In this document: positions 22,887 through 35,741 of the stretch, one piece after another
Layout of the letters: every line of letters starts with the position of its first letter
Position numbering within the stretch: the stretch's first letter is position 1
From: Sulfurospirillaceae bacterium
Lineage (GTDB): Bacteria; Campylobacterota; Campylobacteria; Campylobacterales; Sulfurospirillaceae
Direction of reading: 5' to 3'
Assembly (NCBI GenBank): GCA_028692875.1
Contig: JAQUWL010000021.1
Span: 1 to 35,904 of the forward strand
Length of the DNA: 35,904 bases
Made by a program: the position numbers and the translations under genes
The notes under the pieces: generated by a model
What the model saw: the letters and a program-made list of their open reading frames with translations, nothing else
What the model was told of the DNA's origin: nothing
Database searches by the model: none

Positions 22887-22963
22887 GTCAAGGTAGCTCA
22901 GCTGGTTAGAGCGCTGGTCTCATAAGCCGGAGGTCGAGGGTTCGAGTCCCTCTCTTGACACCA
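22887..22963 (+). tRNA. tRNA with CAU anticodon (elongator Met; Ile2 possible)
   Basis: A 77-base cloverleaf with CCA encoded: acceptor GTCAAGG/TCTTGAC, D stem GCTC/GAGC, anticodon loop CTCATAA, T stem GAGGG/CCCTC with loop TTCGAGT. The G1-C72 pair and the absence of three G-C pairs in the anticodon stem exclude initiator tRNA. Elongator Met is most likely; an Ile tRNA with lysidine-modified CAU cannot be excluded by eye. TATAAT at 22862-22867 is a probable -10. Confidence 0.95.
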
Positions 22964-23064
22964 CTTACTCTCGCTAGATATTAAAATTCAAAGTTATTAG
23001 TAGTATTTAATAAAAAATCACTATAATTGCCAAAGCGTTTTGTGTGGATACAAAAGGTAAATAT

Positions 23065-24183
23065 TTGAAAATAGTGCATTTTAGCGATACGCATTTAGGT
23101 TTTAACGATTTAGACATTATCAATGAGCTTGGTATCAACCAACGTGAGGCTGATTTCTACGATGCTTTTACGCAAGTCGTTGAACAGATTAAAGTGATAA
23201 AACCTGACTATATCATCCACACAGGCGATCTCTTTCACCGTCCATCTCCCAGTAACCGAGCCATCACCTTTGCTCTTGAGCAATTCAAAATCATCGAAGC
23301 GCTGAATATCCCCTTTATCATGATAGCGGGCAATCACTCCACACCACGAACCAACCTAAGCTCTCCAATCCTCAAGATATTTGAAAACTTCAAAAACATT
23401 TATGTTTCATACAATCAAGAGTACAAAAAGATAGAGTTCGATGATGTGATCTTTCACACTTTGCCACACATGCACGATGAAACAAAAGCCCTTTCTCAAA
23501 TCGAGCTGTGCGAAGCAAACATCGATACAACCAAACGCAACATCATGATGCTTCACTGTTCTGTCGGTGCGCACTATCTGATGGCAGAGTTTGGTGAGTG
23601 GGTGTATCCGCACGATAAAGAGAGCCTTTTTTCTAAAGTGGATTATGTCGCTCTTGGGCACTGGCACGGCTTTGGAAAAGTAGGCAAACACGAAAATGTT
23701 TACTATGCAGGCTCCACCGAGCGAACCAGTTTAAACGACAAACGAAACTCAAAAGGTTTTCTTGAAGTTACACTTGATGAGGCTTTACATGTAAACTACC
23801 ATGATATACAAATACGCCCCATTAAAACGTACGAGATTGATTGCGAGGACCACGAGCAATCAATTGAGTCTTTACATGTAAACAATACAAAAGACGCTCT
23901 TGTCGAAGTCAAACTGACCCATCTTACCCCGTTGCAGTCCATCGACATTCAAACACGTGATATCAAAAATCTCTTTAGCGAAGCTTTACATGTAAGCATC
24001 AAACGAGAGTTCAAACAAACCAACGGTGAAGCCATACTAAACGACATCGAAGCACTTTCTTTGGAAGCGTACTTTTTAGAACACATCAAAGAAGAGAGTC
24101 AGCCTGAAGCGTTTGAACGGCTCAAAGGCAAAATCCAAGGCTTGTTTAGTGCCTACGAAGAGGTGAGCGATGATACTTTCTAA
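23065..24183 (+). CDS. sbcD: SbcD/Mre11-type DNA exonuclease
   Basis: 372 residues from TTG 23065 (MKIVHFSDTHLGF), chosen because AAAAGG lies seven bases upstream; a GTG at 23044 lacks a site. Metallophosphoesterase motifs are complete: SDTH, GDLFH, GNHS, LHCSVG and GHWHGFG. Mre11/SbcD cuts DNA ends, hairpins and palindromes in complex with the Rad50/SbcC ATPase. It overlaps sbcC by 14 bases. Three TACATGTA copies (23786, 23873, 23987) all read LHV, in the C-terminal capping and partner-binding part, outside the catalytic motifs. Confidence 0.92.
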   Translation: MKIVHFSDTHLGFNDLDIINELGINQREADFYDAFTQVVEQIKVIKPDYIIHTGDLFHRPSPSNRAITFALEQFKIIEALNIPFIMIAGNHSTPRTNLSSPILKIFENFKNIYVSYNQEYKKIEFDDVIFHTLPHMHDETKALSQIELCEANIDTTKRNIMMLHCSVGAHYLMAEFGEWVYPHDKESLFSKVDYVALGHWHGFGKVGKHENVYYAGSTERTSLNDKRNSKGFLEVTLDEALHVNYHDIQIRPIKTYEIDCEDHEQSIESLHVNNTKDALVEVKLTHLTPLQSIDIQTRDIKNLFSEALHVSIKREFKQTNGEAILNDIEALSLEAYFLEHIKEESQPEAFERLKGKIQGLFSAYEEVSDDTF

Positions 24184-26539
24184 ACTCCACCTTGAAAACT
24201 TCAAACGCTACACCTCCTTTGATATCGAGTTTGGCGAGGGACTGATAGGTATCATTGGTAAAAATGGCAGTGGCAAATCGACCCTTTTTGAAGCCATTCT
24301 CTTTGCCTTGTATGGCGAGCTACGAAATAAAAAATTTAAAGAAGTCATACGCAACGCTAGTGCGAGTGACAAAGATGCCGTTTTGGTCGAGCTTGATTTT
24401 GAGTTTGAAGGTATGGCGTACAAAGTCATGCGTGAGTTTCGTGGAAAAGCGCTCAGTGCCAATGCTAAGCTGTATAAAAATGGCGAGCTTACAACCAGTG
24501 GAGCGAGAGAAGTTACCGTGGCTATCACGAAACTCACAAAGATGAGCAAAGAGGCATTTTTACATACGCTTTTTGCTTCTCAAAAAGAACTTACTAGTCT
24601 AAGTACGCTTAAAAATGAAGATCGAAAAAAAATGATACGCAAACTTCTTGGGCTTGAAAAGATAGACTTTGTGGAAAATGAACTCATCGAAAAAAGCAGA
24701 GAGCTCAAAAGAGACATCGCCGCAAGTGCCGAGTTTCTCTTAGGCGAAGAAGAGTTAAAGAGCAAAACAGCGTTGATAAAAGAGACTAGCACCATAAAAC
24801 AAGTCTTTGAAAAAGAAGTCAAAACCAAATCCACGGAACTAGAAACCACCAAAAAACAAGAGTTACATGTAAAGCAAGAACTAGAAGTATTTGTCAAAAC
24901 AAAAGAGCAAAAACAAAAGCTCATCAGCGAACTTTCCCTCATCAAAAACACGATAAATGCAAACCTAGCCACGCAGACCAAACTCACCACAGAGCTCAAA
25001 ACCTTAGAAACAAAAGCTAAAGAACTTAAAAGTTTAAGCACCGTTAAAAAAGAGTACGAAGCTTTACATGTAAAGATAAAAGAGCAAGAAACTCTCAAAA
25101 ATATACAGATAAAAAAAGAGGGCTTGGAAAAAGAGCAAACCCAGTTACGCGCCCAGTACACCAAAGCCAAAGCAGATATCGCAACACTCGAAGAGCAAAC
25201 CAAACCGTACGAGACACTGTTAGGGCAAAAAAAAGAAAATGAAACTTTACATGTAAAACTAAAAACGGAACTTTCGGCAAAGAAAACCGAGCAAAAACAA
25301 CTCCAAAACGAACTCTCAGCCGAACAGCGAGTCGTCTCAGACACACAACAAAAGATAGCCAAGATACAAAGCCTAGGTCGAGAATCAAACTGCCCTACCT
25401 GTACAAGGCAACTGCTTGATGAGTACGACAATGTCATCGCATCCCTAAATGACATCGTGCAAAAGACACAAAGCCAAAAGATAGACAAAACCAAAGAAAA
25501 ACTTGAACTCCTCACCAAACAGATAGGAGAGATTGAACTTCAAAAAGAGCAAACGCAAAAAGCGTTACATGTAAACGAAACGGCTCTCAGTTTGATACTC
25601 AGTAAGCAAAAAGATTTGGCAAACGCCAAAGAGAATTTTATAAAAGTGAATGAACAAGGTAAATGCAACAAAGAGGAACTTGATACACTCTCAAAACACG
25701 CTTATGATGAAGCGTTACATGTAAGCCTACAAAAAAGCTTTTTGGAGCTAAAACCAAAGTACGAAGCCGTCCTAAGTCTTGAAACTGAGCTCAAACGAGA
25801 GCAGGGCGTGAGAGAAGATTTGGCGCTTACATGTAAGAGTGCAGAAGCTTTACATGTAAAGGCTAAAGAGAAAGAAATGGAAGTTGCAAAAACACTTTAC
25901 GATGAGCCAAAACACACCGCAAAACAAAGCGAATACGACGAACTTCAAAAGCAAAAAGAGAAACAATACAGCGTTATTACAGAGCTAAAAGAAAAGATAG
26001 CCAAAAATGAAGGCGAGATAAAAACCTTGCAAAACGCTCTGGAAAATAACGACATACAACTTAAAAAAGTACAGAGTAAAAAAGACGATTTGCAAGACTA
26101 CGAAAAAATCAAACTAAGCCTCAGCGAGTTTAAAACAAAACTCAACTCAAAAATCGCCCCACGCATTTCCCAAATCGCTTCGCAGATGTACGCCTCCATC
26201 ACCAAAGGCAAATACCAATACATCGAAGTGAACAACGACTTTGACTTTTTCATCTACGACGAGGGCAAATGCTACCCCATAGAACGCTTCAGCGGCGGCG
26301 AGATAGACCTCGCCAACTTAGTGCTTCGCATCGCCATCTCCAAAACACTGAGTGAACTCAGCGGTGCAAGTAGTGTGGGATTTTTAGCCTTCGACGAAGT
26401 ATTTGGAAGTCAAGATGAAAACCGAAGAATGGAAATTTTAGAAGCGTTTCATACTATAAAAGAGCAGTACCGACAGATATTTTTGATAAGTCATGAGATG
26501 GAGATTAAAGAGATGTTTGAGAGGGTTGTGGAATTATAA
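24170..26539 (+). CDS. sbcC: SbcC/Rad50-type ATPase with zinc hook
   Basis: 789 residues. Walker A GKNGSGKST (near residue 30), a long coiled coil with the zinc hook CPTC at residues 408-411 in the middle, the ABC signature FSGGEIDL near residue 707, and Walker B FLAFDEVFGSQD. It forms the SbcCD/Mre11-Rad50 complex with the preceding gene for processing DNA ends and palindromes. Seven TACATGTA copies lie in the coiled coil (24864, 25065, 25248, 25566, 25716, 25828, 25851); six read Leu-His-Val, one reads Leu-Thr-Cys-Lys. None is in the ATPase lobes. No terminator separates it from the next gene. Confidence 0.93.
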   Translation: MILSKLHLENFKRYTSFDIEFGEGLIGIIGKNGSGKSTLFEAILFALYGELRNKKFKEVIRNASASDKDAVLVELDFEFEGMAYKVMREFRGKALSANAKLYKNGELTTSGAREVTVAITKLTKMSKEAFLHTLFASQKELTSLSTLKNEDRKKMIRKLLGLEKIDFVENELIEKSRELKRDIAASAEFLLGEEELKSKTALIKETSTIKQVFEKEVKTKSTELETTKKQELHVKQELEVFVKTKEQKQKLISELSLIKNTINANLATQTKLTTELKTLETKAKELKSLSTVKKEYEALHVKIKEQETLKNIQIKKEGLEKEQTQLRAQYTKAKADIATLEEQTKPYETLLGQKKENETLHVKLKTELSAKKTEQKQLQNELSAEQRVVSDTQQKIAKIQSLGRESNCPTCTRQLLDEYDNVIASLNDIVQKTQSQKIDKTKEKLELLTKQIGEIELQKEQTQKALHVNETALSLILSKQKDLANAKENFIKVNEQGKCNKEELDTLSKHAYDEALHVSLQKSFLELKPKYEAVLSLETELKREQGVREDLALTCKSAEALHVKAKEKEMEVAKTLYDEPKHTAKQSEYDELQKQKEKQYSVITELKEKIAKNEGEIKTLQNALENNDIQLKKVQSKKDDLQDYEKIKLSLSEFKTKLNSKIAPRISQIASQMYASITKGKYQYIEVNNDFDFFIYDEGKCYPIERFSGGEIDLANLVLRIAISKTLSELSGASSVGFLAFDEVFGSQDENRRMEILEAFHTIKEQYRQIFLISHEMEIKEMFERVVEL

Positions 26540-26556
26540 AAAATAAGGAGATTTGA

Positions 26557-28806
26557 ATGTTAGAAAATATTGTTTTAAAAAAAGTTGCAACATATAGTGA
26601 TGAAGGAACAAATATACTAGATTTGAAAAAAATAAATTTTATTTATGGTTCCAATGGTAGTGGAAAAACAACTGTATCAAATTTTATTTCAAATCCTACA
26701 GATTCAAAATTTACTCATTGTAGTTTGCAATGGAAAAATGGGCAGTACCTCGAAACGATTGTTTATAATAAAGAATTCAAAGAAAAAAATTTCAACTCCT
26801 CAAATAGCATAAAAGGTGTTTTTACTCTGGGACAGGCAACAGATGAAGAAATTAAAATTATAGAAGAAAAAAAAGAAGAGTTGAAACAGATAAAAGAGCA
26901 AGAAGTTATTTTTAAAACATCATTAGATAGGAAAGTCGGTACAGATAAAGATGAAGGAGAAATACAAGTATTAGAAAATAAATTTCAAGAATCTTGTTGG
27001 ACAGATTTGTATAAAAAATATGAATCTACTTTTAATGAAGCATTTGATGGAGTAAAAAGAAAGCAAAATTTCAAAGAAAAAATACTTTATGAGTATGAGA
27101 ATAATGGCGCAAGTTTACTAAAACTGGATGATTTAAAAGATAAAGCACAAACTATATTTGGAGAGATTCCTCAAAAATTAGATGTAATTTCTTTATTTGA
27201 CAATGAAATGCTCAATACAATTGAAGTCAATAAAATATGGAGTATGAAAATAATTGGCAAATTTGATGTTGATATTGCAAACTTGATTCAAAGGTTGAAT
27301 ATTAATGATTGGGTTGCTCAAGGAAAAGAGTATATTCAAGATAACAATATATGTCCATTTTGTCAACAAGAAACTATTACAAGTGATTTTAGAACTCAAC
27401 TTGAAAATTATTTTGATACAACATTTATTGAATCAATTGAGAGTATAAAACTATATAAACAACAATATGATTTGTTATTGGGAAATATTGCTAATCAACT
27501 TAATCAAATAGAAACTACACATAAAAATATAAAGAATACAAAGTTAGATATTGAAAAATTTTCAATTTATTTGAAAACGCTTATGAGTCAACTTAACTCA
27601 AATAAAGAGATACTGAATAACAAGATTAAAGAACCGAGCCGAGTATTAGAGCTTATTTCAACGAAAGAGCAATTTGACAATATTAAAGCGTTAATAACAA
27701 CAGCAAATGAAAATATCAACAAACATAATCAAATTGTTGAAAACTATCAAGCAGAAAAAACTTTTTTAATTAGTTCAATTTGGAAATTTTTGATTCATAG
27801 TTTTGATGTTGAAATTAAAGAGTATATAAAAAACCATAATAATCTAGAAAAAGGGATAGAAAGTCTAACAAAACAATATAAAGAAAAACAGGAAGCATGG
27901 AAAAAATTAAATAATGAAATAAAAGAGTTAGATAAAAACATTACTAGCGTTCAACCGACAATAGCTGAAATAAACAAACTTTTAAAATTTTATGGATTTT
28001 TAAATTTTGAGATTGTACCTTCGGATAGGAATATAAACCAGTATCAAATTAAACGAGAAGATGGCAGTTTGGCGCAAGAAACCCTTAGTGAAGGTGAAAT
28101 TACTTTTATTACTTTTTTATATTACTATCAACTTGCGAAAGGTGCAATTAGTGAAAATGAAGTATCAAGTGATAGAATTTTAGTTATTGACGATCCTATT
28201 TCGAGTTTAGATAGTAATGTACTTTTTGTTGTAAGTACGTTAATAAAAAGGATAATTGATGATATACGAGAAAATCGAGGCAATATTAAACAGTTGATTA
28301 TTTTAACTCATAATGTTTACTTTCATAAAGAGGTATCCTTTATTAATGGTAGAGATACTGGAGTAAGAAAAGACACACACTTTTGGATTTTACGAAAAAA
28401 AAATAAAGTTTCTACATTTTTTCCTTATCCAAAAAATCCAATCAAAACATCTTATCAATTATTATGGCAAGAACTAAAAGATAAAGAAAAAAGTTCTGCT
28501 GTTACCTTGCAAAATACGATGAGAAGAATAATTGAAAATTATTTTAAAATTCTTGGGAATTATAGTGATGATAACTTGATTGAAAAATTTGATGACTATG
28601 AAGAACAAGTAATATGCCGTTCACTTATCTCATGGATTAATGACGGTTCACATAGTGTATCCGATGATTTATATGTGGAAGATCAAGATGAATCTATGGA
28701 AAAATATTTAGGTGTTTTCAAAAATATTTTTAAATATACAAATCATGAAGGACATTATAATATGATGATGAATTTAGAAGAAAAGGAAAATAACAATGCC
28801 ATTTAG
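26557..28806 (+). CDS. PrrC/RloC-like AAA_13 ATPase, candidate anticodon nuclease or toxin
   Basis: 749 residues. Walker A IYGSNGSGKTT (about residues 28-38), a coiled coil with CPFC at 266-269 that looks like a zinc hook, the ABC signature LSEGEIT near 510, Walker B ILVIDDPISSLDS and the H-loop LTHN. This is the AAA_13 (PF13166) layout of RloC and PrrC, tRNA anticodon nucleases used against phage. The C-terminal part has R656-x3-E660 (MRRIIENYF) and H699 (NDGSHS), similar in order to the PrrC catalytic Arg-Glu-His but with wider spacing, so nuclease activity is a candidate only. The gene is visibly more AT-rich than sbcC and has no TACATGTA. It overlaps the next gene by 11 bases. Confidence 0.75.
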   Translation: MLENIVLKKVATYSDEGTNILDLKKINFIYGSNGSGKTTVSNFISNPTDSKFTHCSLQWKNGQYLETIVYNKEFKEKNFNSSNSIKGVFTLGQATDEEIKIIEEKKEELKQIKEQEVIFKTSLDRKVGTDKDEGEIQVLENKFQESCWTDLYKKYESTFNEAFDGVKRKQNFKEKILYEYENNGASLLKLDDLKDKAQTIFGEIPQKLDVISLFDNEMLNTIEVNKIWSMKIIGKFDVDIANLIQRLNINDWVAQGKEYIQDNNICPFCQQETITSDFRTQLENYFDTTFIESIESIKLYKQQYDLLLGNIANQLNQIETTHKNIKNTKLDIEKFSIYLKTLMSQLNSNKEILNNKIKEPSRVLELISTKEQFDNIKALITTANENINKHNQIVENYQAEKTFLISSIWKFLIHSFDVEIKEYIKNHNNLEKGIESLTKQYKEKQEAWKKLNNEIKELDKNITSVQPTIAEINKLLKFYGFLNFEIVPSDRNINQYQIKREDGSLAQETLSEGEITFITFLYYYQLAKGAISENEVSSDRILVIDDPISSLDSNVLFVVSTLIKRIIDDIRENRGNIKQLIILTHNVYFHKEVSFINGRDTGVRKDTHFWILRKKNKVSTFFPYPKNPIKTSYQLLWQELKDKEKSSAVTLQNTMRRIIENYFKILGNYSDDNLIEKFDDYEEQVICRSLISWINDGSHSVSDDLYVEDQDESMEKYLGVFKNIFKYTNHEGHYNMMMNLEEKENNNAI

Positions 28807-29446
28807 TGATAAATTAATTAAAGAAATTGATGATTATGTTGTATCTCATTTACCAGATGATAGTTGGTATGAAAACTACTTTAATTTTATTGATGATAAA
28901 GTTCTTGCTGAAAGGTTAGAAAAAGAATTTAAAACAGTAAGATATATTTACAAAATTTTGGAGGGTTTGAAATCAACTGATGAATTACAATTAGCACAAA
29001 TTCGTATTCAAATAATTTTATATGCTTCTATTTATGAAGCAATGGTGCATTATCTATTATTTGAAAAACTAAAAGATAGAAAAGAAGTAAATGAGTTATT
29101 TGATATTACTATACCAGTTGAAATTTCAATACCTGCGCATAAAAAAGAAAAAATTCTTAGTGCTTTAGAGCATGATGGAAAAGAAATTTTGACATACGAA
29201 AAAAAGAAAAAAAAGACAGATATTTCAAAAATTAGATTTGATAAAAAAGCAGAGTGCCTTTATTCTCTTGGTTTTATTGACGAAGAACTTAAAGAGGAAT
29301 TGATTCTATTTTATGAATATAGGAATGCTATTCATATACATGCAGAAATCAAAAAAGATATTCAATATGAGCTTGAAATTTCTAAAAAAGCTTATTGGCG
29401 ATTTCAAAAATTTAAGCAACTTGTTGAAAATAAATTAAAAAGTTAA
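28796..29446 (+). CDS. HEPN-like protein paired with the AAA_13 ATPase
   Basis: 216 mostly helical residues. Near the C-terminus, YEYRNAIHIHAEI contains R176-x3-H180 and R176-x5-H182; the latter fits the R-x4-6-H signature of HEPN ribonucleases, many of which have an RN-x-I-H core. It resembles the short HEPN proteins (MAE_28990/MAE_18760 type) found beside ABC-type ATPases, though I cannot confirm the family by eye. Its start overlaps the ATPase gene by 11 bases, so the two are translationally coupled and probably act together. An alternative is a non-catalytic antitoxin-like partner. No TACATGTA is present. Confidence 0.6.
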   Translation: MPFSDKLIKEIDDYVVSHLPDDSWYENYFNFIDDKVLAERLEKEFKTVRYIYKILEGLKSTDELQLAQIRIQIILYASIYEAMVHYLLFEKLKDRKEVNELFDITIPVEISIPAHKKEKILSALEHDGKEILTYEKKKKKTDISKIRFDKKAECLYSLGFIDEELKEELILFYEYRNAIHIHAEIKKDIQYELEISKKAYWRFQKFKQLVENKLKS

Positions 29447-29449
29447 GTA

Positions 29450-30943
29450 ATGTCCCTCTCAAAATCCCTCTATACTAGAGCCGTTCAATGCCCAAAATCC
29501 CTCTGGCTGAAAAAGTACACGCCAGAGGTTTTAACCACACCCGATGCTAGTGCCAAAGCGCGGTTTGAGACGGGTAACATCGTGGGGGATTTGGCGTGTG
29601 AGTTGTTTCCTGATGGGCGTGAGATACCTTTTGATGCACACGATTTTAAAAGTATGGCGAGGCTGACTAAGGCGTATCTTGAGGAGGGCGTGGAGAACAT
29701 CTACGAGGCGACGTTTATACATGAGGGCATCGTGGTGATGGTGGACATCTTGCGCCAAACGCCTCTTGGCTTGGAGCTGTATGAAGTGAAGAGTTCCACC
29801 GATGTGAAGCCTATTTATCTGCATGATGTTTCCATTCAGCTGTATGTTTTAGAAGCCCTTGGGTTTAGGGTTGGGGCGTGTCATGTGGTGCATATCAACT
29901 CAGGTTATGTGCGAGAAGAAGCATTGGAGCTTGAAAAGCTTTTTGCAATAGTGGATGTTACAGGTGAAGTGCGAGATTTGCAAGGCTCTATTCCTGCGAG
30001 GCTTGAAGCGTTTGAGGCGTATCTGGATGATAAAGTTCATGAGCCAAACATCGACATTGGAAAACAGTGCAATGACCCTTACGAGTGCGATGCAAAGGCG
30101 TATTGTTGGAAGGTTCAGCGACATATCCCAGAGTACAGCATCTTTAACATCTTCAATCTTGGCAGTAAAAAACAACAAGAACTTTATGCCCAAAACATCG
30201 TGGCTATCGAAGCTATACCCGAAGAGTTTGCGATGACACCCATCCAATGGCAAAAGGTTGATAACTGGAAAAAGCAACACACGTTTATCGACCATGATTC
30301 AATCGCTGAGTTTTTGGAAACACTCACCTATCCCATCTATCATCTTGACTTTGAAACCTTTCAACAAGCCATTCCTTTGTGGAGCAGTGTCAGTCCTTAT
30401 AAACAAATACCGTTTCAATACTCTTTACATGTAGAACACCGTGATGGCACTTTGGAGCATAAAGCATTTCTAGCTGAGGCAGGAGTTGACCCAAGACGTG
30501 CTTTGGCTGAGAAACTAGTCGAAGATATACCTTTACATGTAAATATTTTGACATACAATATGAGCTTTGAAAAAGGCGTTATCACCTCACTCGCCCAGCT
30601 GTATCCAGACTTGTCAACTAAGCTTATGCACCTGCACGACACCATCAAAGATTTGATGATTCCTTTCCAAAAAGGACACTACGTCACCCCAAGTATGCAA
30701 GGCAGTTACTCCATCAAATACGTTCTTCCTGCCCTTGTTCCTGAGATGGAACTCGCCTATAAAAAGCTAGAGGGCATCCAAAATGGCGGTGACGCTATGA
30801 ACGCCTTTGCCTCTTTACATGTAAAGCGTTTGGAAGAGCAAATGAAAGTGCGTGAGCAGTTGTTGCAGTACTGTGAACTCGATACTTTGGCTATGGTGAA
30901 GGTGTTGGGAAAATTGAAAGAAGTAAGGAAAAAGAATGAGTAA
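29450..30943 (+). CDS. DUF2779 protein: Cas4-like PD-(D/E)xK nuclease plus DEDD exonuclease
   Basis: 497 residues. N-terminal half: E87, D99, E112-x-K114 (LYEVKSST) and Q130 form a Cas4/RecB-like PD-(D/E)xK site. C14 with C207, C213 and C219 can hold a [4Fe-4S] cluster as in Cas4 and AddB. C-terminal half (DUF2779): D300-x-E302 (YHLDFETF), D397 (HDTIKDL) and D478 (CELDTLAM) fit a DEDD 3'-5' exonuclease. It is therefore a double nuclease for DNA or RNA ends; the substrate is unknown. It carries three TACATGTA copies (30426, 30534, 30816, all LHV), unlike both neighbours. The stop overlaps the start of the helicase gene by eight bases. Confidence 0.8.
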   Translation: MSLSKSLYTRAVQCPKSLWLKKYTPEVLTTPDASAKARFETGNIVGDLACELFPDGREIPFDAHDFKSMARLTKAYLEEGVENIYEATFIHEGIVVMVDILRQTPLGLELYEVKSSTDVKPIYLHDVSIQLYVLEALGFRVGACHVVHINSGYVREEALELEKLFAIVDVTGEVRDLQGSIPARLEAFEAYLDDKVHEPNIDIGKQCNDPYECDAKAYCWKVQRHIPEYSIFNIFNLGSKKQQELYAQNIVAIEAIPEEFAMTPIQWQKVDNWKKQHTFIDHDSIAEFLETLTYPIYHLDFETFQQAIPLWSSVSPYKQIPFQYSLHVEHRDGTLEHKAFLAEAGVDPRRALAEKLVEDIPLHVNILTYNMSFEKGVITSLAQLYPDLSTKLMHLHDTIKDLMIPFQKGHYVTPSMQGSYSIKYVLPALVPEMELAYKKLEGIQNGGDAMNAFASLHVKRLEEQMKVREQLLQYCELDTLAMVKVLGKLKEVRKKNE

Positions 30944-33900
30944 TAATCCATACAATATTATTTTTTGCGATATTGAAGCCAATACAAAAACAAAAAAAGT
31001 TCAAGAAATTGGTTTATTGCATCAAGATAAAGAGTTAAAAACTTCATCTATGCAAGAGAGTATAGCATTTATCAATCTTTGTGACTCTGATTATCTTGCA
31101 GGACATAATTTTATAGATTTTGATATGGAGATATTGAAAGAAACCTCTATGTATCAGCATATTAAAGAATATAACATTATAGATACATTGCCTTTATCGT
31201 TGCTTCTTTTTAATGAAAAAACAGTACATAGCCTTCCTAAAAACTATAAGAGTGAAGATGATTTTAAAAACAATCCCGTCGAAGATTCTAAAATTACATT
31301 AAAACTATTTATCAAACTAGAAGAGAGATTTTTATCTTTAGATAAAGATACGCAAACAATTTTTTATTCGCTTTTAAAAGAGGAAGTCTATTTCAAAGCT
31401 TTTTTTAAATATATTGACGACAAAGTAGTTTTAGTTTCTCTAAATCATCCTCAATTAAAAAGTGCGATAAGAGAAGTCCATCAAAACGTTATCATTAACT
31501 ATGACTATTTAGAAGAAGTTATAACAACAAATCCTATAGAATTGGCATATATCTTAGCTATTTTAACACCCCATATAGAGATAAAATCACACCCTCCTAA
31601 AATTCTATTTTCATATCCGCATATTGTTGAGATGCAAAAAAAGCTCTGTTTTGATCTCGACAATGCCAATGAAACTTTAAGTGCTTTTTCAAAAGAAATA
31701 TTTGGATTTGGTGAGTTTAGAGAATTCCCTAGACTAAATGCAGGTGTGTTGGATGATCCAATAATTTCACAAAGAGAGATTGTTGAAGCATCACTTCGTG
31801 ATGAGTCTTTTTTGGTCATTCTTCCAACAGGAGGTGGGAAAACATTTACGTTTTGGCTTCCAGCAGTTTTCAAAGCAAAAGCCTATAAAGCTCTAACGGT
31901 TGTCATATCGCCTTTGCAAGCATTGATAGAAGATCACATCAAAAGTTTTAATGCCAAAGTAGCGAACTTTAAAGCCGTGGCTATAAGCGGTTTTATGAGT
32001 CCATTGGAGCGAAGTGAAGCGATAGAACAAGTCATCAATGGAGAAGCGGATATACTCTATCTTGCGCCTGAATCTTTACGCTCAAATATGATATTTGGCA
32101 TACTGAAAAATAGGCTTATTGAAAGATTTGTGATTGATGAAGCACACTGTTTGTCCACATGGGGCAATGATTTTAGGCAAGATTATTATTATATTTGTGA
32201 GTATGTTAAAGATTTGTTAGATAAAAAACCTTTTCAAAAGCATATCCCTATCTCATGTTTTACAGCAACAGCAAAGCCTAGTGTTATTGAAGATATAGAG
32301 AAGTTTTTCCAAGAAGGCTTAAATATAAAATTGGATAAATATTTAGCTGTTCCAGAACGAAAGAATTTAAAATATCAATCAATACCAATAGGAATAAAAG
32401 ACAAATATAATGAACTTTTGAGGCTTATCAATGAAAACGAAGGTTCCACTCTTGTATATATTCCTTCTTCAACAAAAAGTTGTGATGAAATAGCTGAAAA
32501 ACTATCTTTAGACACTACAAAAATCGTCAAATCATTTCATTCAAAAATTGATTCACAAGATAAGATGACGATACTGAAAGATTATATTGAAAATAGAATT
32601 GATATTATAGTTGCGACAACAGCTTTTGGTATGGGAGTTGATAAGTCAAATATAACTAATGTCATTCATTATGAAGTTTCAGATTCGTTGGAAAGTTATG
32701 CGCAAGAAGCGGGTAGGGGTGCTAGGGATGAAAAGTTAAGTGCGTATTGTCCTATATTGTTTAATGAAGATGATTTGGACAAGCATTTTCATGCACTTAG
32801 CAGATCAAAACTAACAGCCAGTGAAATTAATTCTATCTTTAAAGTGATAAAGAAATCTAAAACTGATGTGATGCATAAAACAGCTTTTGAGTTAGCGCAC
32901 GATGCGGGTTGGGATGTAGAAGATAGTTCTTCAGATTATCTCACAAAAGTAAAAACAGCACTTTTAGAGTTGGAGCGAGAGGGTTATATCAGTAGAAAAA
33001 GAAATAAAACCAACTTTTTTGCTGATTCGATAGCCTCAGAGGGTATGGCAGAACTTCATGAAAAACTAAAAGATTCAAATTACAATGAGAATGGAAAACA
33101 AACACTCATATTGGTATTGCAAAGTATTCTTGGTAGAGGCAAAGTAGAGTCTGTACAAGTAGATGAATTAGCATATCTTTTAGGATATGAAAAAGATGCT
33201 ATATCTTTAGCAATTTATCAGCTTAAGGAGATGAATATTTTAGGGGACAGTAAGGATTTAAGCTTAGAACTTAGTTTGGAGACTGTTGGAAAGTTCCAAA
33301 ATATTGCAATAATAGAACTATCTTTGTTGCAATACCTAGAATCTTTACAAGGCGCACAAATATCCATGAGAGAATTAAATGAACATTTGCATAGTCAAAA
33401 AATAATCCATAATAATCAGATAGAGTTAATAAAATCAATTATAAAAAACTGGAAAGATAAATCAAATTTTTTATTCAAAAGAATAAACAGAGAACAAGAT
33501 TTGTGGTATTTTAAATTTTTAGAGTTAGAAAATGTTAAGAACACCATAGCATTAAAGCATAGAATCGCAAAACAAGTTTTAACTTTCTTTACCAAATATT
33601 TAACACCCAGCAAAAAAGAAAAAATTATTTTTTCCTTGAAAGAGTTACATGAGGAACTAGATACTAGTGTTACTATAAAAGAGATAGACAAGACATTATT
33701 GTATTTGCATCATTTGAATATATTGGAATTATTAACGGGTAGATTTATAAGCTATAGCCCTATGGATATTCATGTTGAAGAAAAATCTTCTCTCAAAAGA
33801 AAATACACAGAATATAAAAATAGACTGGAAGAGCATTATAGAACAAAGATTGAATCCATTCATATTATGGGAGAGTATGCAAAAAGACTAAAAGGTGATG

Positions 33901-35741
33901 ACTATAAAGCTATATTATTTTTAAAAGATTATTTTACATTGTCATATGATTCATTCAAAAAGAAGTACAATCTTTTAAAAGAGCAGATTTCTAGGCCTAT
34001 TACACAACAAAGATTCAACAAAATCTTTGAAAAAATGTCAGATGAACAGAAAGAAATCATTGAAGATACCAAAAGTAAAGCTATGATGGTTTTAGCAGGA
34101 CCGGGAAGTGGCAAAACAAAAGTTTTGGTGCATAAGATAGCCTCTTTGATTTTGACAGAAGATATTAAGCCTGAGCAATTCATGATGCTTACTTTTTCAA
34201 AAACTGCAAAATGGGAATTTAAAACAAGACTCAATGAACTAATTGGTGCATTATCATACGATGTAGAAATTCAAACATTTCACTCTTACGCTTTAAAATT
34301 GATAGCTAGAAATACAAAAAATGATGAAGGTATTTTAGATAAAGCTATAGAAGAAGCCACAAGAGCAATCAATAACGGTAATATTAAATTACCTTACATA
34401 ACGGTTTTAGTTTTGGATGAGTTTCAAGATATTAACGAAAAAAGTTTTGAATTCGTTAAAGCTATTTATAATGCTAATGCTCAAGATTTAAAAATTATTG
34501 CTGTTGGCGATGATGACCAATGTATCATGGAGCATATTGGTGCCGATGTACGGCTTATAGATGCTTTTGAAAAAGAATTTGGAACCAATGAAGAAGGGGA
34601 GAATTTATACAAGCAGTATGAGCTTTTATGTAATTTTAGAAGCCATAAAAATATCGTTGAGTATTCTAATAATTTTGTCTCCACAGTGAGTCATAGATAT
34701 AAACATAGCCCTCTTTATGCGTATTCGCAAGAAAAGGGAAGTGTGTGTGTTTGCACCTATACTTCAGCCCTATCGCTGGTCACTCCTGCCATAGAGCTTA
34801 TAAAATTGGAAGAAAAATTAGAAAACATTGCTATATTGGCTTTTACTAATGATGAAGTTATGCAAATTTACTCTTTGTTGCAAGAAAATCATATAGAAGC
34901 AAAATATATTATTGAAAGAGAGAAGTTTGAGTTAAAAAATATTATTGAGCTATTTGAATTTAATAAAGTTTTAAATAGCTTTTTATCCGATGAAACTTCC
35001 TATAAAGAGAGTTACTTTGAAAAATCACTCAAAATAATAGAGGAAAAATATAAAAGCTCAACCAATCTTAAACTGCTTTACAAAATCGTAGATAGATTTA
35101 TGAATGAAAGTGATGATTACTATATCTCTCAATGGATCTCTTACTTAGAAGAGATAAAATTGGAAAGTTTTGAAGATTATAAGAAAAATATCGTTGTATC
35201 GACGATACATAAATCAAAAGGGATGGAGTTTGATAAAGTATTTTTATTGGTCGGCGAAAATCCAAATGATGATATAAAAAAGAGATTATATTATGTAGGA
35301 ATGACGCGCGCAAAATATGCACTTAATATACTAAGAAAAGGAAAAGATTATAACAGTAAAAAGGATTATGCCCAGTATGTATTGGATGAGCACCCTTATC
35401 TGCAAAATGAAAAAATCTTTACACATGTTATGAGTTTATCTGATATACGCCTTGGTTTTGATGTGGATAAATACAGCAAAAATGATAGTTTTTTTGCTGG
35501 GATGAAAGTATCGATTGAAAAAAAACCAAATTTTGACAATATGTGTATCATTTGTAACAATAGAGTTATTGGTATATTTTCAGATTCATTTCAAAAAATA
35601 TTAATGGAAAAACTAAGCGGCGGTTACCTTTTTAATGAGATAGTGATTGATAATGTTGTCGTATGGTTTGACAGAGATAATAACAAATATCTGAAACATC
35701 CGTTGTGCAAGATTGTATTGAAAAATAATAAAATAGTTTGA
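30936..35741 (+). CDS. DEDD exonuclease-RecQ helicase-UvrD helicase fusion
   Basis: 1601 residues with three enzymes in order. (1) Residues ~1-130, DnaQ-like exonuclease: D12-x-E14 (FCDIEAN), GHNFIDFD (D61/D63), D83, VED117. (2) ~270-640, RecQ-type SF2 helicase: LPTGGGKT (K302), DEAH 401-404, TATA, FGMGVDK and QEAGRGARD; a winged-helix-like region follows but the RecQ zinc cysteines are not seen. (3) ~1030-1480, UvrD-type SF1 helicase: GPGSGKT 1055-1061, DEFQD 1161-1165, GDDDQC, NFRS, STIHKSKGMEF and LYYVGMTRAK. All key residues are intact. Translational overlap with the DUF2779 nuclease suggests joint action. It is AT-rich with no TACATGTA. Role: likely DNA repair or anti-phage DNA processing; not established. 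Confidence 0.88.
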   Translation: MSNNPYNIIFCDIEANTKTKKVQEIGLLHQDKELKTSSMQESIAFINLCDSDYLAGHNFIDFDMEILKETSMYQHIKEYNIIDTLPLSLLLFNEKTVHSLPKNYKSEDDFKNNPVEDSKITLKLFIKLEERFLSLDKDTQTIFYSLLKEEVYFKAFFKYIDDKVVLVSLNHPQLKSAIREVHQNVIINYDYLEEVITTNPIELAYILAILTPHIEIKSHPPKILFSYPHIVEMQKKLCFDLDNANETLSAFSKEIFGFGEFREFPRLNAGVLDDPIISQREIVEASLRDESFLVILPTGGGKTFTFWLPAVFKAKAYKALTVVISPLQALIEDHIKSFNAKVANFKAVAISGFMSPLERSEAIEQVINGEADILYLAPESLRSNMIFGILKNRLIERFVIDEAHCLSTWGNDFRQDYYYICEYVKDLLDKKPFQKHIPISCFTATAKPSVIEDIEKFFQEGLNIKLDKYLAVPERKNLKYQSIPIGIKDKYNELLRLINENEGSTLVYIPSSTKSCDEIAEKLSLDTTKIVKSFHSKIDSQDKMTILKDYIENRIDIIVATTAFGMGVDKSNITNVIHYEVSDSLESYAQEAGRGARDEKLSAYCPILFNEDDLDKHFHALSRSKLTASEINSIFKVIKKSKTDVMHKTAFELAHDAGWDVEDSSSDYLTKVKTALLELEREGYISRKRNKTNFFADSIASEGMAELHEKLKDSNYNENGKQTLILVLQSILGRGKVESVQVDELAYLLGYEKDAISLAIYQLKEMNILGDSKDLSLELSLETVGKFQNIAIIELSLLQYLESLQGAQISMRELNEHLHSQKIIHNNQIELIKSIIKNWKDKSNFLFKRINREQDLWYFKFLELENVKNTIALKHRIAKQVLTFFTKYLTPSKKEKIIFSLKELHEELDTSVTIKEIDKTLLYLHHLNILELLTGRFISYSPMDIHVEEKSSLKRKYTEYKNRLEEHYRTKIESIHIMGEYAKRLKGDDYKAILFLKDYFTLSYDSFKKKYNLLKEQISRPITQQRFNKIFEKMSDEQKEIIEDTKSKAMMVLAGPGSGKTKVLVHKIASLILTEDIKPEQFMMLTFSKTAKWEFKTRLNELIGALSYDVEIQTFHSYALKLIARNTKNDEGILDKAIEEATRAINNGNIKLPYITVLVLDEFQDINEKSFEFVKAIYNANAQDLKIIAVGDDDQCIMEHIGADVRLIDAFEKEFGTNEEGENLYKQYELLCNFRSHKNIVEYSNNFVSTVSHRYKHSPLYAYSQEKGSVCVCTYTSALSLVTPAIELIKLEEKLENIAILAFTNDEVMQIYSLLQENHIEAKYIIEREKFELKNIIELFEFNKVLNSFLSDETSYKESYFEKSLKIIEEKYKSSTNLKLLYKIVDRFMNESDDYYISQWISYLEEIKLESFEDYKKNIVVSTIHKSKGMEFDKVFLLVGENPNDDIKKRLYYVGMTRAKYALNILRKGKDYNSKKDYAQYVLDEHPYLQNEKIFTHVMSLSDIRLGFDVDKYSKNDSFFAGMKVSIEKKPNFDNMCIICNNRVIGIFSDSFQKILMEKLSGGYLFNEIVIDNVVVWFDRDNNKYLKHPLCKIVLKNNKIV

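What the first reader, a model, noticed from the sequence alone, without database searches (positions are those of the whole stretch)
30936..35741. Single polypeptide joining a DEDD exonuclease, a RecQ helicase and a UvrD helicase
Three complete enzymatic modules, each with intact catalytic motifs, sit in one 1601-residue protein. Pairing a 3'-5' SF2 helicase with an SF1 helicase and a proofreading-type exonuclease suggests a self-contained DNA unwinding and degrading machine, analogous in logic to RecBCD/AddAB but built from different parts. The RecQ zinc-binding cysteines seem absent, so DNA recognition may differ. Similar long fusions may exist in databases as RecQ-family helicases; I know of no characterised function.
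Basis: partly seen in the sequence, partly recalled or inferred. Interest (0 to 1): 0.8.

Follow-up and report, generated by a model that had tools for sequence, protein, structure and literature searches.

The report
Exonuclease–RecQ–UvrD fusion in defence islands
A real and widely shared bacterial protein joins a DNA-trimming enzyme and two DNA-unwinding motors in one chain; it moves between bacteria alone or among anti-virus genes, so it is probably an uncharacterised one-protein DNA-attack (defence) enzyme.

Summary
The 1601-aa ORF is real and not an assembly artefact. Homologues with the same order (DEDD exonuclease, RecQ core, winged helices, UvrD core) occur in Campylobacterota, Bacteroidota, Clostridia, Proteobacteria and Verrucomicrobia, and on closed plasmids. 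Both helicase cores keep every catalytic residue checked. The exonuclease keeps its D-E-D-D tetrad in 45–46 of 46 homologues, but the usual His/Tyr is replaced by a near-invariant Asn, so nuclease activity is likely, not shown. RecQ zinc cysteines and HRDC are absent. RecBCD/AddAB is a poor analogy: RecQ and UvrD motors share 3'->5' polarity, and the nuclease is DEDD, not PD-(D/E)XK. WRN and DinG are closer.

The gene is patchy (14/298 Campylobacterota genomes), horizontally moved, usually without a fixed partner, and often beside R-M, CRISPR, Fic or LeoBC genes. It is most likely a self-contained mobile DNA-processing defence enzyme (function inferred).

Unexpectedly, in the window it lies in a slot of a modular island: sbcD–sbcC | swapped defence cargo | DUF2779 nuclease | this gene. 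In sister genomes the constant genes are 90–95% identical while the cargo is exchanged exactly at gene borders. A palindrome, TTACATGTAA, is packed into the constant genes and nearly absent from cargo.

The parts
30936..35741 (+). Exonuclease-RecQ-UvrD fusion gene (FUS), 1601 aa; ATG overlaps the stop of the upstream gene by 8 nt, with AAGGAAA just upstream
30957..31325 (+). DEDD 3'-5' exonuclease core (aa 8-130): D12, E14, D63, D117; Asn112 at the general-base position
31326..31760 (+). helical linker (aa 131-275); in most non-Campylobacterota homologues it carries a C-x(2-5)-C-x(1-3)-C cluster, absent here
31770..32735 (+). RecQ-type SF2 helicase core (aa 279-600): GGGKT 299-303, DEAH 401-404, QEAGRGAR 590-597
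32736..34025 (+). tandem winged-helix region (aa 601-1030) in place of RecQ-Ct; no zinc cysteines, no HRDC
34035..35345 (+). UvrD-type SF1A helicase core (aa 1034-1470): GPGSGKT, DEFQD, GDDDQ, IHKSKG, MTRAK
35346..35738 (+). poorly conserved C-terminal domain (aa 1471-1601), function unknown
29450..30943 (+). DUF2779 protein (497 aa), predicted PD-(D/E)XK (DUF83-like) plus RNase H-like exonuclease; constant gene of the cassette
   Evidence: PMC3985635
28796..29446 (+). 216-aa protein of unknown family, slot-1 cargo
26557..28806 (+). AAA_13 ATPase, PADLOC PDC-S06 (E 9e-274), slot-1 cargo
24170..26539 (+). SbcC/Rad50-like ATPase, constant gene
23044..24183 (+). SbcD/Mre11-like metallophosphatase, constant gene
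22887..22963 (+). tRNA-Met directly upstream of the cassette

Best explanation
FUS is a horizontally moving, stand-alone DNA-processing enzyme, most probably an anti-phage/anti-plasmid effector. Shown: one chain with a DEDD-fold exonuclease, a RecQ-type SF2 motor, tandem winged helices and a UvrD-type SF1 motor, all catalytic residues conserved across phyla except the exonuclease general base (Asn); patchy, plasmid-borne, often beside defence genes; in the window it fills a slot of a defence cassette. Inferred mechanism: the winged-helix region and the RecQ motor engage a duplex with a 3' single strand or an abnormal fork, as found in replicating or recombining invading DNA. RecQ and UvrD, both 3'->5' translocases, open it on the same strand in tandem or on the two arms of a fork. 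The exposed 3' end is fed to the DEDD exonuclease, which trims it 3'->5'. Structure-specific loading would give selectivity without sequence recognition.
For: Fold and motifs. Conserved three-part architecture across phyla. Patchy, non-vertical distribution: 14/298 genomes in the phylum and 5/44 in the family; the closest relative (69%) is on an Aliarcobacter plasmid, while same-family copies share 40-63%. Found alone on plasmids of three phyla. Defence neighbours: LeoBC pair + WYL, PDC-S37/Hhe, type I, III and IIG R-M, Dcm, RmrA-like, Fic, PDC-M21B, type I-D CRISPR. In the window it follows DUF2779 in a cassette whose other slot holds known or candidate defence genes in sister genomes, and it lies next to a dGTPase in G320.
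Against: No activity or phage assay exists. Several Campylobacterota copies sit alone between housekeeping genes, which fits repair equally well. The neighbour survey was small and the control neighbours also gave some PADLOC hits. PADLOC has no full-length model. Asn112 could mean a weak or inactive nuclease.
Confidence: 0.55

Rival explanations
1. Accessory genome- or plasmid-maintenance enzyme, a bacterial WRN/DinG-like fork and recombination processor that helps the host or its plasmids survive replication stress; defence neighbours only reflect shared mobile elements.
For: Architecture resembles exonuclease-helicase repair enzymes; S. aureus DinG is the top structural match to the exonuclease plus linker. 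B. subtilis DinG mitigates replication stress (PMC12525004). Several copies are alone between housekeeping genes; one lies beside parAB on pACIB.
Against: Very patchy even within a family (5/44) and repeatedly beside R-M, CRISPR and other defence genes.
Confidence: 0.25
2. Subunit of a larger machine with the neighbouring SbcCD and DUF2779 nucleases: the cassette is one multi-protein system in which FUS is the helicase engine.
For: Tight co-directional operon with overlapping genes; DUF2779-FUS adjacency and overlap also in G240.
Against: Most homologues lack these genes nearby. DUF2779 occurs in 5 of 14 FUS genomes against 3.0 expected (p=0.15). G240 keeps FUS although its sbcDC is reduced to remnants.
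Confidence: 0.12
3. The exonuclease domain is not a nuclease but an end-binding or regulatory module, so FUS is only a double helicase.
For: The DEDDh His / DEDDy Tyr is replaced by Asn112 in 45/46 homologues; one homologue (L016) has lost E14 and another (L138) is altered at motif III.
Against: The four metal-binding acidic residues are kept across phylum-level divergence and are among the only 14 near-invariant columns of the domain, as expected for an active two-metal nuclease.
Confidence: 0.2

Closest known systems
WRN (human Werner helicase-exonuclease)
   Same: N-terminal DEDD-superfamily exonuclease followed by a RecQ helicase core
   Different: WRN is DEDDy and has RQC (zinc + WH) and HRDC domains and no UvrD module; here Asn replaces Tyr, there is no zinc or HRDC, and a UvrD core is added
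DinG of Firmicutes (DEDD exonuclease + XPD-like helicase)
   Same: best structural match to the exonuclease and linker (Z 12.4); exonuclease-helicase fusion
   Different: single XPD-like helicase instead of RecQ + UvrD
RecQ family helicases (TIGR00614)
   Same: complete RecQ core motifs, score above the curated cut-off
   Different: no RecQ zinc, no HRDC, two extra enzymatic modules
GajB (Gabija UvrD-like helicase)
   Same: UvrD-type core in a defence setting; several PADLOC GajB models match
   Different: no GajA partner seen; fused to RecQ and exonuclease
RNase H-like family F.14 of the 2014 superfamily survey (PMC3985635)
   Same: that survey already noted an RNase H-like exonuclease domain in 'RecQ ATP-dependent DNA helicases', clustered with T7 DNA polymerases
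   Different: the passages read do not describe a UvrD module or a function; whether these are the same proteins was not tested
RecBCD / AddAB
   Same: nuclease plus helicase acting on DNA
   Different: PD-(D/E)XK nuclease, multi-subunit, in RecBCD opposite-polarity motors; none of these seen here

Membership tests
RecQ helicase family | RecQ-type SF2 core with conserved motifs | tested here: met
   TIGR00614 230 bits vs cut-off 219.8; K302, D401, H404, R594, R597 46/46
RecQ helicase family | RecQ-Ct four-cysteine zinc site after the core | tested here: not met
   no Cx(5-30)CxxCxxC in residues 598-760 of any of 46 homologues; a RecQ-like helicase core, not a canonical RecQ
RecQ helicase family | HRDC domain | tested here: not met
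   no Pfam HRDC match at E<=1 in the window protein
UvrD/Rep SF1A helicases | full set of SF1A motifs | tested here: met
   PF00580 and PF13361 above cut-off; K1060, DE 1161-1162, R1458 43/43
DEDD (DnaQ-like) 3'-5' exonucleases | RNase H-like exonuclease fold | tested here: met
   all 50 top structural rows are DnaQ-fold exonucleases, Z 10-12; Foldseek itself gave no E<=0.001
DEDD (DnaQ-like) 3'-5' exonucleases | D-E-D-D metal-binding tetrad | tested here: met
   45-46 of 46 homologues
DEDD (DnaQ-like) 3'-5' exonucleases | catalytic His (DEDDh) or Tyr (DEDDy) | tested here: not met
   Asn112 at D-5 in 45/46; D-4 is variable
WRN orthologues | DEDDy exonuclease + RecQ + RQC + HRDC | tested here: not met
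   no Tyr, no zinc site, no HRDC; UvrD core present
RecBCD/AddAB | RecB-type PD-(D/E)XK nuclease domain | tested here: not met
   no such Pfam match in the chain; the nuclease is DEDD
RecBCD/AddAB | Chi recognition | not testable with these tools
   needs biochemistry
Known anti-phage systems (PADLOC-DB 2.0) | match over most of the protein to a system model | tested here: not met
   only partial helicase matches (DpdF, PsyrT, GajB) among the best 25 of 53 families

The most novel reading that the evidence does not exclude
FUS is an interchangeable effector plugged into a modular defence chassis. SbcCD and a DUF2779 double nuclease (often followed by a dGTPase) are the constant parts; slot 1 (between sbcC and DUF2779) and slot 2 (after DUF2779) receive different defence genes. 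Exchange is driven by natural transformation and homologous recombination at the constant genes, which carry a dense uptake-signal-like palindrome TTACATGTAA.
Probability: 0.35. Interest if true: 0.82.

Novelty: new variant of a known kind. Interest (0 to 1): 0.6.

Why it matters
If active, this is a single-chain enzyme combining two helicase superfamilies with a proofreading-type exonuclease, present across many bacterial phyla yet uncharacterised: a tractable model for coupled unwinding and degradation, and a candidate one-gene defence system missing from PADLOC. Its location reveals a cassette with constant nuclease genes and exchangeable defence cargo, which would give a handle on how defence islands swap parts.

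Tried and rejected
Assembly artefact: rejected, same architecture in closed plasmids and genomes. Dead helicase core: rejected, motifs invariant. Conserved operon with SbcCD/DUF2779 as an obligate complex: not supported (hypergeometric p=0.15; solo copies elsewhere). Zinc site relocated to the linker: a C-x-C cluster is there in most non-Campylobacterota homologues but absent in P0001. Phage gene: phage records gave RecQ-only matches; full-length copies in IMG/VR contigs look like cargo beside R-M genes, some beside phage-like genes. dGTPase elsewhere in the own genome to complete the cassette: none found, uninformative because the contig ends 163 bp after FUS. Foldseek of the middle region gave no strong single match, only weak winged-helix similarity. 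Fold models could not be opened for distances, so whether His98 replaces the missing base was not tested.
Full report
Abbreviation: FUS = the ORF at 30936-35741. Genome handles (G...) are unnamed; the organism is most likely a member of Campylobacterota, inferred from its close relatives.

1. The ORF is a single open frame of 1601 codons. Pfam finds a RecQ-type DEAD/Helicase_C pair and a UvrD N/C pair; of the NCBIfam models shown, it passes the cut-off of recQ_fam only, which is why homologues are labelled 'RecQ family ATP-dependent DNA helicase'. No Pfam model hits the N-terminus. A profile of 31 homologues finds only weak PDB sequence matches (best E 0.03), but most of them are DEDD exonucleases: TREX1-like, PolC exonuclease, Cas2-DEDDh, Pol II. 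An AlphaFold model of residues 1-275 (pLDDT 86) aligns in all top 50 VIA-align rows with DnaQ-fold exonucleases, best S. aureus DinG (Z 12.4, 227 residues, rmsd 5.3). Foldseek's own E-values were not below 0.001, so the assignment rests on fold, motifs and consistency of the list together.

2. Catalytic residues. In 46 homologues from several phyla, RecQ K302, D401, H404, R594, R597 are 46/46 and UvrD K1060, D1161, E1162, R1458 are 43/43 where present; further motifs are listed. Exonuclease D12 and D63 are 46/46, E14 and D117 45/46. Position D117-5, which holds the catalytic His in DEDDh enzymes, is Asn in 45/46; D117-4, the Tyr of DEDDy, is variable. His98 and Lys102 are also near-invariant. 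The exonuclease is therefore conserved but of an unusual 'Asn' type; activity is inferred. The RecQ zinc cysteines are absent from all 46. The region 601-1030 is predicted as tandem winged helices.

3. The fusion is a widely conserved unit. Full-length homologues (about 1570-1900 aa, same order) occur in Campylobacterota, Bacteroidota, Clostridia, Gamma-, Beta- and Alphaproteobacteria and Verrucomicrobia, and on closed plasmids of Aliarcobacter, Bacteroides and Thiothrix. It is not an assembly product. An RNase H-like domain in 'RecQ ATP-dependent DNA helicases' was already recorded as family F.14 in a 2014 survey (PMC3985635); the passages read mention no UvrD module, and I could not test whether those are the same proteins. 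Literature searches found no description of the three-part fusion.

4. It moves. 14 of 298 phylum genomes and 5 of 44 family genomes carry it. Its closest relative (69%) is on the Aliarcobacter plasmid pACIB, beside parAB, while copies in the same family as the window share 40-63%.

5. Neighbours. Most copies have no fixed partner. Several lie beside defence genes: two LeoBC-like dynamins and a WYL regulator (L040), PDC-S37/Hhe directly upstream (L067), type I R-M (L052), type III R-M (L140), type IIG (L133), Dcm (L130), RmrA-like (L055), Fic (L054), PDC-M21B (L058), and type I-D CRISPR genes within about 8 kb (L049). A tally of 103 neighbours against 104 neighbours of ordinary RecQ genes gave matches to 127 versus 40 PADLOC models. 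The models are redundant and the set small, so this is suggestive only.

6. The window's own locus is a modular island. Upstream lie sbcD, sbcC, an AAA_13/PDC-S06 ATPase, a 216-aa protein and a DUF2779 protein, behind a tRNA-Met. In sister genomes sbcC (91-95%) and DUF2779 (90-93%) recur, patchily and sometimes twice per genome, against 70-74% for one control window gene in the three genomes where a clear homologue was found. The genes between them differ, with the change at the sbcC stop and the DUF2779 start. Cargo there includes OLD, Ppl-like, KAP, HNH, DEAD helicase, RT-UG6, LmuB-like and a second PDC-S06. On Arcobacteraceae plasmids the same order continues to a dGTPase, with a Qat locus (annotated qatC) or SIR2/DUF87 genes in slot 1; a 2019 plasmid paper lists these genes in a table, and the passage found says nothing more of them (PMC6690266). 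FUS occupies slot 2 in the window and in G240; in G320 it follows a dGTPase. DUF2779 is not significantly associated with FUS overall (5 of 14 versus 3.0 expected, p 0.15), so FUS does not depend on it.

7. A palindrome marks the constant genes. TTACATGTAA occurs 16 times in the window against 0.1 expected and 265 times in the genome, with 0 for the reversed control. Over eight loci the density is 2.6/kb in sbcDC, 1.6/kb in DUF2779, 0.35/kb in flanks and 0.06/kb in cargo (the loci are related, so not independent). Within the window alone, 12 in 5 kb has Poisson p about 2e-10 relative to the upstream rate. I read it as an uptake-signal-like repeat that would favour exchange of cargo by recombination at the constant genes; this is untested. 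It is absent from the loci of other families examined.

8. Mechanism. RecQ and UvrD enzymes are 3'->5' translocases and DEDD enzymes degrade 3'->5' (established knowledge). The three modules are therefore expected to share polarity: RecBCD-like opposite motors are unlikely, whereas tandem action on one strand or action on both arms of a fork is possible. The likeliest role is a self-contained defence enzyme against replicating invading DNA (0.55); accessory repair or plasmid maintenance is the main rival (0.25). The rival confidences are not mutually exclusive.

Verdict: a real, conserved, uncharacterised new variant of known nuclease-helicase fusions; interest 0.6, raised by the modular island.

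Noticed in passing
window 23044-35741; L232-L246, L250, L251-L254: Modular island: constant sbcD-sbcC and DUF2779 (often followed by dGTPase) with swapped cargo in the slots, exchanged at gene borders; cargo includes Qat, OLD, RT-UG6, Ppl-like, KAP, HNH and PDC-S06 genes.
   Followed up: partly
window 23785-25859, 30533, 30815; 265 sites in the whole genome: Palindrome TTACATGTAA is hugely over-represented (0.1 expected in the window, 16 found), concentrated in sbcDC and DUF2779 and nearly absent from cargo; possible DNA uptake or other chromosomal signal.
   Followed up: partly
L048-L067, L130-L143, linker before RecQ: Most non-Campylobacterota homologues have a C-x(2-5)-C-x(1-3)-C cluster in the linker between exonuclease and RecQ, possibly a relocated zinc site; absent in the Campylobacterota clade.
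   Followed up: no
G240 (L026:9662-9985): sbcDC of this cassette is reduced to an sbcD start joined near an sbcC end, while the DUF2779-FUS pair is intact.
   Followed up: partly
L034:1401-7517: G245 carries a 2039-aa FUS homologue with extra low-complexity DSKxDSK-like stretches, plus a second full-length copy (L032).
   Followed up: no
L018/L033 (G003): A degraded FUS copy with an internal stop and a deletion, showing local loss of the gene.
   Followed up: no
L236:8141-15266: Downstream of DUF2779 in G123: an HTH/WYL-like regulator followed by genes including a 1234-aa P-loop protein with no PADLOC match at 1e-10; Wadjet-like from its look only.
   Followed up: no
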